From the NCBI GenBank assembly GCA_046759145.1, contig JBHIBR010000078.1, positions 1 through 7,678 of the forward strand: a stretch of DNA of 7,678 nucleotides. Direction: 5' to 3'. This DNA is from JBHIBR01 sp046759145 [NCBI: Nitrospinota bacterium] (GTDB taxonomy: Bacteria > UBA8248). Under the pieces are notes generated by a model. It saw nothing but the letters and a program-made list of their open reading frames with translations, was not told the DNA's origin and made no database searches. The translations under genes and the position numbers were made by a program. Positions 485-7,397 of the stretch are shown here, piece by piece; position 1 is the stretch's first letter; each line of letters opens with the position of its first letter.

Positions 485-1666
485 ATGTCCACACGGAAGG
501 GGTTGTCGGTGGAGAAGACATCTTCTTGGCTGGAGATCGAGGAAGGGAGCCTGGCCGAGCGCCTCTCCCGAGAAGCAGACGCCCCTGGCAAGCCTCCCTG
601 GCGGCGCCGGGCCCTTGACTTCGAGAGGAACCTCCGAGCGATCCTCGCACCCGAGCTGGAGGTCCGCCGCCAGGGCGAAGAGGGCGTGGCGCTCCGCTGG
701 AGGGCTGGCGTTTACGAGCCCGAAGGGACCCCCCGGGTTTTTGAGGCCGTGGTGCGGAGGGACCCCCTCCTCTCCATCACCACCTCCAATAACCCCGCCC
801 GGGCGCGCCGCCCTCGGAAACTCTATAGCGCCTCGCGCCTGTCCCCCGCCCTGGCGGGCGTTGACCAGGTTTGTCGGCCCGAGGAGTGCCCTTTCCATTC
901 CACCCGCATCGGCACTGACCCCGCCGGCTACCTCCTGGTCCCGGGCCACTGCCTCCGCTTGGGGGAGGAGGTGGTGCGCTTGCGCGTCACCTCGGCCAAG
1001 GTCAACCTCTACCCTTCCCTGCCGGGTCAGTTCGTTGTGCTGGCCGCACTGGACCACCACCGGCGTCTGGCCCACCGGCCGGTGGAGGAGACGCGTGAGA
1101 CCCTCCGCGCGCTCCAATGGTTCCACCGCGTCGCGCGAGAGGAAGGTACGGCCAAGGGGCTCGACCTGTGGGTCAACGAGGGGGCGCTCGGCTTCGCCAC
1201 CCTGCCCCACCCGCACTGGCAGGTGCGCCCCCGCTTCGACTGGGAAAGGCATTTCATCGAGCCCTTCCCGGAGCCCGGGATGGGGGCCGCCCTGGTGCGG
1301 GAGACCCTCTGGTCGGGGAGGGGGTTCGCCCTGGCGCTCGAGCCGAGCCTGGCCGAGCTACGCCTCCTCGCCCGCGAGCCTGCTCCCTTCGACGCCCTGG
1401 ATGCGGTCGAACTGGCGGAGGTCCTCCGGCGGGTGGACCTGGCCTTCGAGCGGCTGGGGGTGAGCAGCTACAACTTCATGGTGTGCGCGGCCGACTTCGA
1501 CCGCGAGGCGGGTCGGCTCGCCCTCATCCGCATCCAGGCCCGGGAGGAGCCTTACACCTCCTCCAACCAGGCGGGCCTGGAGTTCCTCCACAACGGCCGC
1601 TTCCGCATGGTGGCGCTCGACCTGGAGCGGCTGAGGGAAGCGGTGGTGGCCGAGCTCAACCGCTAA
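485..1666 (+). CDS. GalT-like nucleotidyl transferase, HIT superfamily
   Basis: A 393-residue protein resembling galactose-1-phosphate uridylyltransferase and related phosphorylases, which transfer nucleotidyl groups through a nucleotidyl-histidine intermediate. Visible features: C130-x4-C135 in a CPF context like the GalT zinc region; NLYPSLP at 174-180 followed by DHH at 190-192, matching the GalT N.FPAL...DH segment; and PHPHWQ at 241-246, equivalent to the active-site HPHGQ, making H244 the likely nucleophile. Tryptophan replaces the glycine of HPHGQ. The SSYNF stretch at 367-371 and the C-terminal beta-rich half also fit GalT. The native substrate is unknown; no galactose genes are nearby. 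The ATG at 485 has its AGGG directly adjacent, whereas GTG at 509 has GGAAGGGG 7 bases upstream, so the true start may be 509. It probably stands alone and ends in a hairpin shared with the convergent gene. Confidence 0.75.
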   Translation: MSTRKGLSVEKTSSWLEIEEGSLAERLSREADAPGKPPWRRRALDFERNLRAILAPELEVRRQGEEGVALRWRAGVYEPEGTPRVFEAVVRRDPLLSITTSNNPARARRPRKLYSASRLSPALAGVDQVCRPEECPFHSTRIGTDPAGYLLVPGHCLRLGEEVVRLRVTSAKVNLYPSLPGQFVVLAALDHHRRLAHRPVEETRETLRALQWFHRVAREEGTAKGLDLWVNEGALGFATLPHPHWQVRPRFDWERHFIEPFPEPGMGAALVRETLWSGRGFALALEPSLAELRLLAREPAPFDALDAVELAEVLRRVDLAFERLGVSSYNFMVCAADFDREAGRLALIRIQAREEPYTSSNQAGLEFLHNGRFRMVALDLERLREAVVAELNR

Positions 1667-1701: not shown

Positions 1702-2568
1702 CTAGCGCCGCCGCCGCATCTCCCGCGCCACGCGGCCCACCGTCTCGGGCACGAGCTGGGTCCGGTACCAGCGGCGGTACTCTTCCATCCGGACCCGCTT
1801 CTGGATCTCCCCCTCAGGTAGCCCCTGCCGCACGAGCGCCCCCACCCGGGCGCGCAGGGTGCGCCAGTACTGGAGCATCTCCTCGATCTGGACCTTACCC
1901 CGCCCGACCGGGCCGTGGCCGGGAACGGCGTAGCGCGCCTCCACCCGCAGGAGCTGCCCCAGGAGCTTGAGCCAACTCTCGGTGTTGGCCAGGCGCGCCA
2001 CGGGGTGGGTGCGGCCGAACACGAGGTCGCCCGTGAAGAGGACCTTCTGCTGGGGGAAATAGACGATGCTGTCCCCCTTGGTGTGGCCGTGGCCCATGTG
2101 GGTGAGCTCGACCGTCCGCCCCCCGAGCCGCATGGTGAGGCTTCCGCGGAAACACACCTGGGGCGGGTAGATGTCTCTCTTGCCGATGTACTGCTTGACC
2201 GAAGGACCCCGGCCCGCCATCTGCTGGAACCAGAAGGGCCGCTCCCGCTCCATCTCCTGGGCGATGGGCTCGGCGCCGATGACGGCGGCCCCCTGGGCGG
2301 CGTAGAACTCGTTGTCCGAGGTGTGGTCGAAGTTGTGGTGGGTGTTGAGGACAAGGCGCACCTTGGCGCGGGTGATCCTCCGCATCCCTTCCACGAAGGG
2401 CTTCCGCGCCCGGATGTCGTTGTCGATGACGATGGCCCCCTCCTTCGTGAGGACGAAGCCGAAGTTGGTCCGGCCCTCTCCCCCAATGAAGACGTGGATG
2501 CCGTCCGCCACCTCCTGGAAACCCTGGGTTTTTGCGGGCCCGGGAAGGGCTTTGGGCGCGCGTGCCAT
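1702..2568 (-). CDS. Metallo-beta-lactamase-fold hydrolase, altered zinc motif
   Basis: A 288-residue cytoplasmic-looking MBL-fold hydrolase. Such proteins use one or two metal ions to hydrolyse esters, thioesters, lactams or related bonds; the substrate here is unknown. The usual order is visible: IVIDND at 47-51, the metal loop THHNFDH at 76-82, GHTKGD at 161-166, FTGD at 178-181 and PGHG at 216-219. The canonical loop is HxHxDH; here the second histidine is N79 (codon AAC), while H77, D81, H82, H162, D181 and H218 are kept, so only the first metal site loses a ligand. The start is fixed by AAGGGAGGT five bases before ATG at 2568, although the frame extends 15 codons upstream without a better start. 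The C-terminal 70 residues are Arg-rich and helical. It is a single-gene unit, convergent with the GalT-like gene. It is not a recognisable true beta-lactamase, and no lipoprotein or Sec signal is seen. Confidence 0.9.
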   Translation of the reverse strand: MARAPKALPGPAKTQGFQEVADGIHVFIGGEGRTNFGFVLTKEGAIVIDNDIRARKPFVEGMRRITRAKVRLVLNTHHNFDHTSDNEFYAAQGAAVIGAEPIAQEMERERPFWFQQMAGRGPSVKQYIGKRDIYPPQVCFRGSLTMRLGGRTVELTHMGHGHTKGDSIVYFPQQKVLFTGDLVFGRTHPVARLANTESWLKLLGQLLRVEARYAVPGHGPVGRGKVQIEEMLQYWRTLRARVGALVRQGLPEGEIQKRVRMEEYRRWYRTQLVPETVGRVAREMRRRR

Positions 2569-2715: not shown

Positions 2716-2738
2716 GGGGCCGGCGAGGCCCCTTTTTT
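2716..2738 (+). terminator. Intrinsic terminator facing right, no gene directly upstream
   Basis: GGGGCC (2716-2721), loop GGCGA, GGCCCC (2727-2732) and six T (2733-2738) make a textbook rho-independent terminator on the plus strand. The nearest upstream plus-strand gene ends more than 1 kb away, and the gene just to the left is on the minus strand. It must therefore act on an unannotated transcript, as an attenuator for the pterin operon, or as a barrier to read-through. Confidence 0.65.
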
Positions 2739-2879: not shown

Positions 2880-3290
2880 GTGCTCTACCTCACCCGCCGG
2901 GAGGAGTTCTGCGCGAGCCACCGCCTGTTCAGCCCCGATCTCAGCCCTGAGGAGAACGACCTTCTCTTCGGCAAGTGCAACAACCCCCACGGCCACGGGC
3001 ACAACTACCTCGTCGAGGTGACCGTGCGGGGCGAGGTCGAGGGGAGAACCGGCATGGCCTTCAACCTCACCACCCTCAAGGAGCTGATGCGCCGGGAGGT
3101 GGTGGAACAGCTCGACCACAAGAACCTCAACATGGACGTGGACTTCCTCCGCGGCCTCAATCCCACCGCGGAGAACCTCTGCACCGCCGTCTGGCGGCGT
3201 CTCGAGCCGCACCTGGGGGCCGGGCGACTGCACCGGGTGCGGATCTACGAGAACGAGCGGAACTGGGTGGACTACTACGGGGAGAAGTGA
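2880..3290 (+). CDS. ptpS: 6-pyruvoyl-tetrahydropterin synthase, animal-like type
   Basis: A 136-residue enzyme converting 7,8-dihydroneopterin triphosphate to 6-pyruvoyl-tetrahydropterin, the second step of tetrahydrobiopterin synthesis. Visible residues: zinc ligands H14 (FCASHRL), H39 and H41 ([11 protein letters not shown]), catalytic C33, the D79-H80 relay in LDHKNLNMD, and E124 in YENE, which anchors the pterin ring. These sit at a constant offset of nine from the mammalian enzyme's His23, His48, His50, Cys42, Asp88, His89 and Glu133, with GKCNNP, GHGHNY, TGM.xNL and DHKNL all kept. This favours PTPS over QueD, which shares the fold but normally has a much more divergent cysteine-to-HGH segment. 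Start: GTG at 2880, with GGGAGGGGAG ending eight bases upstream; the frame is open further upstream but that part is not protein-like. Its stop overlaps the folE start as TGATG, so it heads a coupled operon. Confidence 0.92.
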
Positions 3291-3877
3291 TGGATAACCT
3301 GGCGCGCGTGCGGGCGGCCCAGCGGGCCGCAGAGGCGGAGGCGCACATCCGCGAAGTGCTCGCCCACCTGGGCGAGGACCCCGACCGGGAGGGGCTGCGC
3401 AAGACGCCGGCCCGGGTGCGGGAGGCTCTTGAGTTCCTCACGGCGGGATACCGGAGCGACCCTCAGGAGGTGCTGAACGGGGCGGTGTTTGACTCGGATA
3501 ACGACGAGATGGTGCTCGTCAGGGACATCGACATGTTCAGCCTCTGCGAGCACCACCTGTTGCCCTTCTTCGGCAAGGCCCACGTGGCTTACATCCCCGC
3601 GGGCCGGATCGTGGGCATCTCCAAGCTGGCCCGCCTGGTGGATGTCTACGCCCGCCGCCTCCAGGTCCAGGAGCGGCTCACCCAGCAGGTGGCGACCGCG
3701 CTGGAGGAGGCCCTCCTCCCCCGGGGGGTAGCGGTGGTGGTGGAGGCCCAGCACCTGTGCATGATGATGCGGGGGGTGGAGAAGCAAAACTCCCTCACCG
3801 TCACCAGCTGCATGCTGGGGGCCTTCCGCGACCAGGCGAGCACCCGCCAGGAGTTCATGTCCTACATCAAGCCCTGA
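3290..3877 (+). CDS. folE: GTP cyclohydrolase I
   Basis: A 195-residue, full-length type I GTP cyclohydrolase, a zinc enzyme that converts GTP to 7,8-dihydroneopterin triphosphate, the shared precursor of folate and tetrahydrobiopterin. Zinc ligands are C86 and H89 in [18 protein letters not shown] and C157 in [12 protein letters not shown]88 is the catalytic histidine of CEHH. Other family signatures are [20 protein letters not shown] at 109-128 and the C-terminal block from [12 protein letters not shown] to RQEFMSYI. The N-terminal helix and [12 protein letters not shown] (32-43) are also typical. ATG at 3290 shares one base with the preceding stop (TGATG), which implies translational coupling with the PTPS gene and hence direct hand-over of its product. 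It may also feed folate synthesis, but no other fol genes are in view. Confidence 0.96.
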
Positions 3878-3904
3878 GAGGCGCACCCCCGAGGAGAGGT
3901 GGCC

Positions 3905-4621
3905 GTGGGCGGGCTGGAAGGGAAAGCAGTCTGCGTCACGGGCGCCTCCCGTGGGATCGGCCGCGCCATCGCCCTGCGGCTCGCCCGGGAGGGGGCTAGC
4001 CTGCTCCTCGCAGCCCGCAACCGCCCCCTCCTGGGGCTGGTGGCGGAGGAGGCGCGCGCCCTGGGGGGGCGGCCCCGGGCGGTGGTGTGCGACGTGCGGC
4101 GGCCGGCCCAGACTCGGCGCCTGGCCCGCGCGGCCGAAGGCCTCGCGGGGGGGTTGGACGCGCTGGTCAACAACGCCGGCGCCGGCTCCTTCGCCCCCCT
4201 GGAGGAGCTGGACGAGCAGGGGTGGGAGGAGACCCTGGGCACCTGCCTTAAGGGTGCCTACCTCTGCACCCGGGCCCTCCTCCCCCTGCTGGAGCGGCGG
4301 GGCGGCCACGTGATCAACATCTCCTCGACGGCGGCCCTGGTGGGTTTCGCGGGCTCGGCGGCCTACTGCGCCGCCAAGGCGGGCCTCGAGGGTTTCAGCC
4401 GCGCCCTCGCCGAGGAGCTCCGCCCCCGGGGGATGCGGGTGAGCGTGGTGCGGCCGGGCCCGACCCGGACCGACATCTGGGACGCCATCCCTGGGGAGTA
4501 CGACCGCTCGCAGATGATGGAGGCCGAGGTGGTGGCCGAGAGCGTGGCCCACATCCTGTGCCAGCCCCCAAGCGCAGTGGTGGGCGACCTCACCCTGCTG
4601 CCGGCCTCGGGCAGGCCCTAA
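3905..4621 (+). CDS. Short-chain dehydrogenase/reductase, candidate pterin reductase
   Basis: A 238-residue classical SDR that reduces or oxidises carbonyl or alcohol groups with NAD(P). Visible: TGASRGIG at 12-19 for the nucleotide; an AARN turn after the second strand, whose Arg, with R16, suggests NADPH; NNAG at 89-92; and catalytic S141, Y154 and K158 in an YCAAK context. The tetrad Asn, normally in an NLxG segment, is Cys at 114 (TCLKG). The PGPTRTD stretch near 185-191 is the usual loop after the sixth strand. By sequence alone it looks FabG-like and could be annotated 3-oxoacyl-ACP reductase. Its place 27 bases after folE in a PTPS-folE operon makes sepiapterin reductase or another pterin reductase plausible; this is inference from context. 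GTG at 3905 is preferred because GAGGAGAGG (3891-3899) is correctly spaced for it; GTG at 3899 is also in frame. Confidence 0.85.
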   Translation: MGGLEGKAVCVTGASRGIGRAIALRLAREGASLLLAARNRPLLGLVAEEARALGGRPRAVVCDVRRPAQTRRLARAAEGLAGGLDALVNNAGAGSFAPLEELDEQGWEETLGTCLKGAYLCTRALLPLLERRGGHVINISSTAALVGFAGSAAYCAAKAGLEGFSRALAEELRPRGMRVSVVRPGPTRTDIWDAIPGEYDRSQMMEAEVVAESVAHILCQPPSAVVGDLTLLPASGRP

Positions 4622-4633
4622 TCCCGGCTCTCC

Positions 4634-4663
4634 TTGATTGGGGGCACGGGCAGTTCCTATAAT
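4634..4663 (+). promoter_or_regulatory. Sigma-70-type promoter for the PilZ-domain gene
   Basis: TTGATT at 4634-4639 and a perfect TATAAT at 4658-4663 are separated by 18 bases. This is the best housekeeping promoter in the window. It begins 12 bases after the SDR stop codon and makes the PilZ gene independent of the pterin operon. The predicted start near 4670 leaves a leader of about 114 bases. Confidence 0.6.
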
Positions 4664-7010: not shown

Positions 7011-7397
7011 TCAGGCGGAGCAGCGGCAGATGAGCTCGATCTCCACCCGGCCCCCTCGCACCAGCTCCTTGACCGCCAGGGTCGTTCGTGCGGGCGGATC
7101 CTTCGGGAAGTACTCGCTAAAAACGGCGTTCATCTCCATGAGCTCGGAGAGGTCCGCCATGAAGATGGTCACTTTCAGGGCGCGGTCCAGGGAGGAACCC
7201 CCTGCCTCCACCACCGCCTTGAGGTTCTCGAGCGCCTGGCGCGTCTCGGCGGCGATGCCGCCGGGTACGAGGGCGTTCGTCTTGGGGTCCACCCCCAATT
7301 GCCCCGAGCAAAACAGCAGGTCCCCATCCCGGATGGCCTGGGAGAGGGGCACCTTGCCCGAAGCCGCCTTGTCGGTGTGGATGACCTCTCGCGCCAC
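7011..7397 (-). CDS. ridA: RidA family enamine/imine deaminase
   Basis: A 128-residue member of the YjgF/YER057c/UK114 family. RidA proteins hydrolyse reactive enamine and imine intermediates from PLP enzymes, releasing ammonia and a keto acid and so protecting other enzymes from damage. Visible: LLFCSGQLGVDP at 27-38, R104 in PPARTTL (the carboxylate-binding arginine of active members) and E121 in VEIELI, both expected for deaminase activity. The family works as a trimer with active sites between subunits. GTG at 7397 has GGGAGGG six bases upstream and fits the family N-terminus; the frame extends 17 codons further but without protein-like sequence. It is the first gene of a minus-strand operon with purE 28 bases downstream. 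Confidence 0.93.
   Translation of the reverse strand: MAREVIHTDKAASGKVPLSQAIRDGDLLFCSGQLGVDPKTNALVPGGIAAETRQALENLKAVVEAGGSSLDRALKVTIFMADLSELMEMNAVFSEYFPKDPPARTTLAVKELVRGGRVEIELICRCSA

What the first reader, a model, noticed from the sequence alone, without database searches (positions are those of the whole stretch)
2880..4621. A compact candidate tetrahydrobiopterin operon with an animal-type PTPS
Seen: PTPS, GTP cyclohydrolase I and an SDR are consecutive, with a TGATG overlap and a 27-base gap. All seven metal and catalytic residues of mammalian PTPS occur at a constant offset of nine, along with the surrounding motifs. Known: GTP cyclohydrolase I, PTPS and sepiapterin reductase (an SDR) are the three enzymes of BH4 synthesis. 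Inference: the operon makes BH4 or a related tetrahydropterin rather than only queuosine or folate precursors. No pterin-dependent hydroxylase is in the window, so the consumer is unknown.
Basis: partly seen in the sequence, partly recalled or inferred. Interest (0 to 1): 0.65.

Follow-up and report, generated by a model that had tools for sequence, protein, structure and literature searches.

The report
Bacterial tetrahydrobiopterin-type cofactor operon
Three neighbouring bacterial genes look like the pathway animals use to make the cofactor tetrahydrobiopterin; the arrangement recurs in several bacterial phyla and belongs to a known kind, but what uses the product is usually unclear.

Summary
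In detail: PTPS (2880-3290), GTP cyclohydrolase I (3290-3877) and an SDR (3905-4621) form a compact unit. The seven-residue argument does not discriminate, since E. coli QueD has all seven. Better tests support the BH4-type reading: PTPS-II spacing CxxxxxHGH; 51% identity without gaps to rat PTPS; a 99/98 branch with animal PTPS, away from QueD. In relatives FolE adjoins PTPS in 76 of 80 loci, a similar SDR in 29 of 80. In 41 of 50 genomes another PTPS copy lies outside the operon; of 25 read, 23 have the queuosine motif, with the folate-hybrid Glu in 15 of 15 genomes lacking FolB and 0 of 8 having it. The SDR is sepiapterin-reductase-like only within a wide SDR group. Aromatic amino acid hydroxylase occurs in 4 of 50 operon genomes, NO synthase in 1 of 50; carbinolamine dehydratase (46 of 50) proved uninformative after a control. 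The window's own genome is not held, so product and consumer stay inferred. New member of a known kind.

The parts
2880..3290 (+). PTPS-II type 6-pyruvoyl-tetrahydropterin synthase, GTG start, 136 aa
   Evidence: PF01242; 51% identity to rat and human PTPS without gaps; CxxxxxHGH motif; with animal PTPS in the tree
3290..3877 (+). FolE, GTP cyclohydrolase I, 195 aa; start overlaps the PTPS stop (TGATG)
   Evidence: TIGR00063 261.5 bits against cut-off 181.6
3905..4621 (+). Classical SDR, candidate sepiapterin reductase; GTG at 3905 preferred over 3899 (searches used the 3899 start)
   Evidence: near full-length match to C. tepidum sepiapterin reductase (2bd0), second in the Foldseek list; S143, Y156, K160 (numbered from 3899) invariant in the 16 rows
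2716..2738 (+). Intrinsic-terminator-like hairpin plus T run upstream of the operon
   Evidence: stem 2716-2732, 6 G-C pairs, then TTTTTT; 2 such sites in the region, 0.9 expected by shuffling
4634..4663 (+). Promoter-like site just after the SDR, possibly the start of a separate PilZ/ferredoxin unit
   Evidence: TTGATT-18-TATAAT, 10 of 12; 2 found against 0.1 expected; suggests that the operon ends at the SDR (inference)

Best explanation
A three-gene operon for a tetrahydrobiopterin-type pterin. FolE turns GTP into 7,8-dihydroneopterin triphosphate; the PTPS-II enzyme turns that into 6-pyruvoyl-tetrahydropterin; the SDR, probably NADPH-dependent (inferred), reduces the side-chain carbonyls to tetrahydrobiopterin or a close isomer. 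Shown here: gene content and order, the subfamily of the PTPS, recurrence in other phyla, and separate PTPS copies with the queuosine motif in most relatives tested. Inferred: the chemistry of each step in this organism, the SDR's substrate, the stereochemistry, any later conjugation, and the use of the product.
For: PTPS: CxxxxxHGH, the published PTPS-II signature (PMC5041015 passages); 67 of 132 identical to rat PTPS without gaps, QueD matches much weaker; tree split 99/98 with 55 rows (window, animals, operon copies) against 25 QueD-side rows (80 of 177 rows used). Linkage: FolE beside PTPS in 76 of 80 loci, and the other 4 loci end at or within 130 bases of their PTPS gene(s); a similar SDR in 29 of 80, from six phyla by record title. 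Queuosine: in 41 of 50 genomes a PTPS copy lies outside the operon, in 20 of 50 within 2 kb of queC. Folate: CExxHGH hybrid copies in 15 of 15 read genomes without FolB, plain CxxxHGH in 8 of 8 with FolB. SDR: operon SDRs, C. tepidum sepiapterin reductase and clavaldehyde dehydrogenase separate from FabG (91/81); E. coli FolM is far off. Inside one phylum (that of G044) AAAH is enriched with strong PTPS-II matches, 16 of 36 against 4 of 36, p = 0.003, kinship not corrected.
Against: No own genome. The PTPS reaches the cut-off of neither NCBIfam model: TIGR00039 (PTPS/QueD subfamily) 87.6 against 125.5 bits, QueD 71.9 against 89.25. A similar SDR is adjacent in only 29 of 80 relatives; 43 of the 47 FolE-bearing loci without it have 1.8 kb or more of sequence left. 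The SDR's best structural match is clavaldehyde dehydrogenase and the 50 rows shown lie within Z 32.8-36.1. AAAH is in only 4 of 50 and NOS in 1 of 50 operon genomes. In 9 of 50 genomes no PTPS copy lies outside the operon locus, and 4 of these (G005, G009, G011, G015) have a strong QueC, so there the operon PTPS may also serve as QueD, or the assembly is incomplete. In two of 25 genomes read the outside copy is itself CxxxxxHGH.
Confidence: 0.75

Rival explanations
1. The PTPS is this organism's QueD: FolE and PTPS feed queuosine (or also folate), and the SDR is an unrelated fatty-acid-type reductase.
For: E. coli QueD keeps all seven residues; 4 of 50 relatives have a strong QueC and no PTPS copy outside the operon; the NCBIfam PTPS/QueD subfamily model is not reached either.
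Against: Motif, tree and alignment place it with PTPS-II; in 23 of 25 genomes read the outside copy has the CxxxHGH motif, and in 20 of 50 an outside copy lies within 2 kb of queC. FabG cut-off not reached (139.7 against 297.75 bits).
Confidence: 0.12
2. The operon makes a conjugated or specialised pteridine (for example a glycosylated tetrahydropterin, or a secreted pteridine such as the pepteridines), not a free cofactor. This overlaps with the best explanation: the first steps are the same.
For: In 54 of 80 loci (53 of the 60 Acidobacteriota and the one labelled Betaproteobacteria) a gene of one glycosyltransferase cluster ends within about 150 bases of the PTPS start (Pfam checked for two of them); pteridine glycosides are known from Chlorobium and cyanobacteria; a Photorhabdus island with FolE, PTPS and a pteridine reductase makes pepteridines.
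Against: None of the ten window proteins scanned matches a glycosyltransferase or peptide synthetase family (the protein at 485-1663 matches nothing there); the Chlorobium enzyme belongs to another glycosyltransferase group.
Confidence: 0.2
3. PTPS and FolE work together, but the SDR is a bystander, so that 6-pyruvoyl-tetrahydropterin is reduced by another enzyme. This too overlaps with the best explanation.
For: A similar SDR is adjacent in only 29 of 80 loci; the SDR structures compared are nearly tied.
Against: Where present it follows FolE (PTPS in Brevibacillus) in six phyla, and these SDRs group together and with C. tepidum sepiapterin reductase, away from FabG.
Confidence: 0.1

Closest known systems
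Mammalian BH4 pathway (GTPCH1, PTPS, sepiapterin reductase)
   Same: Same three enzyme families; PTPS 51% identical without gaps
   Different: Genes in one operon; the SDR is closer to bacterial SDRs; mammalian sepiapterin reductase does not appear in the rows shown (60 of 708; 50 each)
Bacterial PTPS-II, e.g. Synechococcus PCC 7942 (PMC5041015, passages)
   Same: CxxxxxHGH motif of the subfamily; PTPS activity reported there in vitro
   Different: Activity of the window PTPS untested; the Synechococcus sequence was not compared here
Chlorobium tepidum sepiapterin reductase 2bd0 and its pteridine glycosyltransferase (PMC5683033, part 1 of 2 of the text)
   Same: SDR 37% identical over 225 residues, including the C-terminus
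   Different: Not the single best match; no glycosyltransferase found in the window; the Chlorobium product is L-threo-BH4, the window's is unknown
Single- and dual-domain bacterial PTPS (Kong et al. 2006, title only, seen in a reference list)
   Same: Relatives here include fused dual-domain forms in Brevibacillus and Armatimonadota
   Different: The window has one domain
E. coli QueD and FolM
   Same: Same superfamilies
   Different: QueD falls on the other side of the PTPS tree; FolM is distant from the SDR (27% over 172 residues)
Photorhabdus pepteridine island (PMC5384830, passages)
   Same: FolE, PTPS homologue and pteridine reductase together
   Different: No peptide synthetase or pyruvate-dehydrogenase-like genes among the window proteins scanned

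Membership tests
PTPS-II (BH4 branch of COG0720) | CxxxxxHGH spacing of catalytic Cys and zinc-binding HGH | tested here: met
   C33-NNPHG-H39 G40 H41; signature from PMC5041015
PTPS-II (BH4 branch of COG0720) | Groups with animal PTPS and apart from QueD | tested here: met
   99/98 split; 137 columns only, place inside the branch unresolved
PTPS-II (BH4 branch of COG0720) | Reaches NCBIfam TIGR00039 (PTPS/6-carboxytetrahydropterin synthase subfamily, not specific to PTPS-II) | tested here: not met
   87.6 against 125.5 bits; the model spans PTPS and QueD alike, so this does not separate the two; Pfam PF01242 is far over its cut-off
PTPS-II (BH4 branch of COG0720) | Makes 6-pyruvoyl-tetrahydropterin | not testable with these tools
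   Needs an assay
QueD (PTPS-I) | CxxxHGH spacing | tested here: not met
   N35 stands where the Cys would be
QueD (PTPS-I) | Reaches the NCBIfam QueD cut-off | tested here: not met
   71.9 against 89.25 bits
PTPS-III (folate) | ExxHGH motif | tested here: not met
   P36 stands where the Glu would be
GTP cyclohydrolase I FolE | NCBIfam TIGR00063 over cut-off | tested here: met
   261.5 against 181.6 bits
Sepiapterin reductase (SDR) | Classical SDR core with catalytic Ser, Tyr, Lys | tested here: met
Sepiapterin reductase (SDR) | Groups specifically with a characterised sepiapterin reductase | tested here: inconclusive
   with the C. tepidum enzyme but also with clavaldehyde dehydrogenase; long branches
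Sepiapterin reductase (SDR) | Reduces sepiapterin / 6-pyruvoyl-tetrahydropterin | not testable with these tools
   Needs an assay
FabG (acyl-ACP reductase) | Reaches the NCBIfam FabG (TIGR01830) cut-off | tested here: not met
   139.7 against 297.75 bits
BH4 pathway with known consumer | AAAH, NOS or other pterin-dependent enzyme in the same genome | not testable with these tools
   No whole genome held for the window; in relatives AAAH 4 of 50, NOS 1 of 50

The most novel reading that the evidence does not exclude
The operon makes a tetrahydropterin for an enzyme or function not yet described: of 50 related genomes that carry it, 46 show no aromatic amino acid hydroxylase and 49 no NO synthase. 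Lineage-specific partners (a glycosyltransferase in Acidobacteriota, a peroxiredoxin in Ignavibacteriota-like loci) hint at a glycosylated or redox-protective pterin.
Probability: 0.3. Interest if true: 0.6.

Novelty: new member of a known kind. Interest (0 to 1): 0.3.

Why it matters
Bacterial BH4 synthesis is in print for cyanobacteria, green sulfur bacteria and some gut Actinobacteria, and a 2016 review put the bacterial PTPS-family members likely to serve BH4 at about 50. A compact PTPS-FolE(-SDR) unit in several phyla, mostly from environmental metagenome assemblies by record title and mostly without the classic consumers, makes the question of what bacteria do with such pterins testable by expression and knock-out.

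Tried and rejected
Seven-residue argument for PTPS over QueD: rejected, since E. coli QueD has all seven.

Carbinolamine dehydratase (PCD) as a sign of a pterin hydroxylase: 46 of 50 operon genomes have it, but in the phylum of G044 it is as common without a strong PTPS-II match (33 of 36) as with one (34 of 36); dropped. Genes around PCD in 20 fetched stretches: apart from PCD itself no cluster was shared by more than 4 of the 20.

FA_hydroxylase (AGMO-like) family: 26 of 50 at E 0.001, 25 over the cut-off, too broad to name a consumer. An association test in the phylum of G005 was abandoned, because 197 of 198 genomes match the PTPS query.

Placing the window's organism: no genome held. The protein at 485-1663 has only 4 weak matches in 297 genomes of the phylum of G001, an Acidobacteria record; the SDR tree joins the window to two Gemmatimonadota rows at 84/82; the phylum stays unknown. 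Defence-system scan of five window proteins: nothing. Rfam: one sub-threshold radC RNA match.

Structure comparison of the SDR: model pLDDT 95, but the 50 rows shown lie within Z 32.8-36.1, so it does not decide the substrate. Mammalian sepiapterin reductase is not in the rows shown; this proves nothing.

Literature searches. Searches (Acidobacteria with tetrahydrobiopterin or biopterin terms) returned 0 papers; this covers only the open-licence library held.

Rows dropped before counts: the PTPS tree used 80 of 177 domain rows. L112, L113 and L116 were missed by my motif pattern, are not in the tree, and were read (L116 CKNLHGH; L113 CxxxxxHGH; L112 of the same kind, read from a partial alignment). 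L122 and L123 repeat genomes already read; L117 lies in the operon locus. Labels PTPS1/PTPS2 follow gene order and are swapped for a few loci (L026, L040). Searches used 50 genomes reached through 50 of the 80 loci. Searches used 72 of the 200 genomes: 36 of the 37 best-scoring (G044 left out, being in the first set), and all 36 with no match or a best E of 1e-24 or weaker. In one search the PTPS start was estimated as ORF end minus 410. Phylum names are from record titles; L020 and L032 have none there and were grouped with Ignavibacteriota by me.

Full report
Check of the observation. On the + strand the window holds a PTPS-family gene (2880-3290), FolE (3290-3877) and a classical SDR (3905-4621, or from 3899). 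The PTPS stop and the FolE start share TGATG; the FolE-SDR gap is 27 bases with the GTG at 3905, which has the better-spaced GAGGAGA. A terminator-like hairpin lies upstream at 2716-2738 and a promoter-like site follows the SDR at 4634-4663, so the three genes look like one unit that ends before the PilZ gene (inference). Third-position GC of all three is 93-94% in a window of 70% GC, as expected of real genes.

What the PTPS is. The best solved relatives are rat and human PTPS (E 1.6e-40 and 8.6e-40), then a nematode chain (2.6e-26), 2oba (3.4e-13), and chains named 6-carboxy-tetrahydropterin synthase from about 2e-7. The alignment to rat PTPS runs 132 residues without a gap, 67 identical. 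The published subfamily signatures do (PMC5041015, passages): PTPS-II CxxxxxHGH, QueD CxxxHGH, folate-type ExxHGH. The window has CxxxxxHGH. It reaches the cut-off of neither NCBIfam model, the PTPS/QueD subfamily (87.6 against 125.5) nor QueD (71.9 against 89.25). A tree of 80 of 177 domain rows splits the window, animal PTPS and operon PTPS (55 rows) from QueD-type copies (25 rows) with support 99/98; the window's place inside its branch is open.

Relatives. One genome scan gave 80 loci, the best of at least 575 relatives, at 49-59% identity. FolE is beside PTPS in 76 of 80; the other four loci end at or within 130 bases of their PTPS gene(s). An SDR similar to the window's is in the cluster in 29 of 80: Acidobacteriota 17 of 60, Ignavibacteriota-like 7 of 8, Bacteroidota 1 of 7, Gemmatimonadota 2 of 2, Bacillota 1 of 1, Armatimonadota 1 of 1, one locus labelled Betaproteobacteria 0 of 1. 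Of the six best hits fetched from the phylum of G044 all six have FolE beside PTPS and four show the SDR within short flanks.

Is it queuosine or folate? In 50 of these genomes PTPS-family genes were counted. In 41 of 50 a copy lies outside the operon locus; in 20 of 50 it is within 2 kb of queC. Motifs were read for 25 genomes with such a copy. In 15 the copy is CExxHGH, the queuosine/folate hybrid signature, and all 15 lack FolB; in 8 it is CxxxHGH without the Glu, and all 8 have FolB. In the other two, both Gemmatimonadota, it is of the CxxxxxHGH kind. Against this reading, 9 of 50 genomes have no copy outside the operon locus, and 4 of those have a strong QueC (E under 1e-60); completeness of these assemblies was not given. 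So in most relatives tested the operon PTPS has a third job (inference).

The SDR. It matches C. tepidum sepiapterin reductase nearly over its whole length (37% over 225 residues; E 3e-35), but other SDRs score alike. In a 38-row tree the operon SDRs, the C. tepidum enzyme and clavaldehyde dehydrogenase separate from FabG (91/81), and E. coli FolM is far away. The predicted model (pLDDT 95) finds clavaldehyde dehydrogenase first and the C. tepidum enzyme second by Foldseek, and is tied with many SDRs by VIA-align (C. tepidum enzyme Z 33.8, rank 10). Sepiapterin reductase is a good guess from context, not a demonstrated identity.

Consumer. AAAH is in 4 of 50 operon genomes, NOS in 1 of 50. PCD is in 46 of 50, but a control inside the phylum of G044 shows no link with PTPS-II (34 of 36 against 33 of 36), whereas AAAH is enriched (16 of 36 against 4 of 36, Fisher p = 0.003; 16 of 36 against 2 of 32 if four genomes with intermediate matches are left out; kinship not corrected). 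So a hydroxylase may use the pterin in some lineages and something else in most Acidobacteriota examined. There a gene of one glycosyltransferase cluster ends within about 150 bases of the PTPS start in 53 of 60 loci (54 of 80 in all); in 7 Ignavibacteriota- or Bacteroidota-type loci a peroxiredoxin-cluster gene does (families confirmed on examples).

Novelty. Bacterial PTPS-II, its linkage to FolE (PMC5445326, passages), single- and dual-domain forms (title only) and BH4 production by bacteria (PMC5227711, passages) are in print. The window is a new member of that kind. Searches for tetrahydrobiopterin or biopterin terms with Acidobacteria returned no paper in the library held.

Noticed in passing
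L001:4910-6004 and 53 further loci: A family 2 glycosyltransferase gene (Pfam checked for L001 and L054) ends within about 150 bases of the PTPS start, in some cases overlapping it, in 53 of 60 Acidobacteriota loci and one other: a candidate pterin glycosyltransferase unlike the Chlorobium one.
   Followed up: partly
L020:5538-5996, L032:2192-2671, L048:5532-5996 and 4 more loci: A peroxiredoxin (AhpC/TSA; Pfam checked for L020) gene directly upstream of PTPS in Ignavibacteriota- or Bacteroidota-type loci.
   Followed up: partly
L001:6001-6869 and 64 more loci; L070:2609-3535; L080:2348-3235: Two PTPS genes close together in 65 of 80 loci, and fused dual-domain PTPS in L070 and L080. By alignment, second copies lack the catalytic His in 17 of 65 rows, and the first domain of L080 lacks Cys, Asp and His. 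Perhaps a hetero-oligomer with one degenerate partner.
   Followed up: partly
L085-L094, L106-L111, L114-L116, L118-L121: In 23 genomes, lack of FolB goes with a CExxHGH PTPS copy (15 of 15) and presence of FolB with a copy that lacks the Glu (8 of 8).
   Followed up: yes
window 485-1663 (+): 393-aa protein without Pfam or NCBIfam match at E 0.001; weak similarity to HIT / AP-4-A phosphorylase proteins (E 0.026-0.2).
   Followed up: partly
window 1705-2568 (-): Metallo-beta-lactamase-fold protein nearest to the 'quinoprotein relay' models, below their cut-offs.
   Followed up: no
L070:4268-6293: In Brevibacillus the FolE-PTPS-SDR genes are followed by an HATPase-domain protein and an alpha/beta hydrolase, which may point to a signalling link.
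   Followed up: no
window 7126-7279 (-): Sub-threshold radC RNA match (27.3 against 40 bits) inside the RidA gene; probably chance.
   Followed up: no
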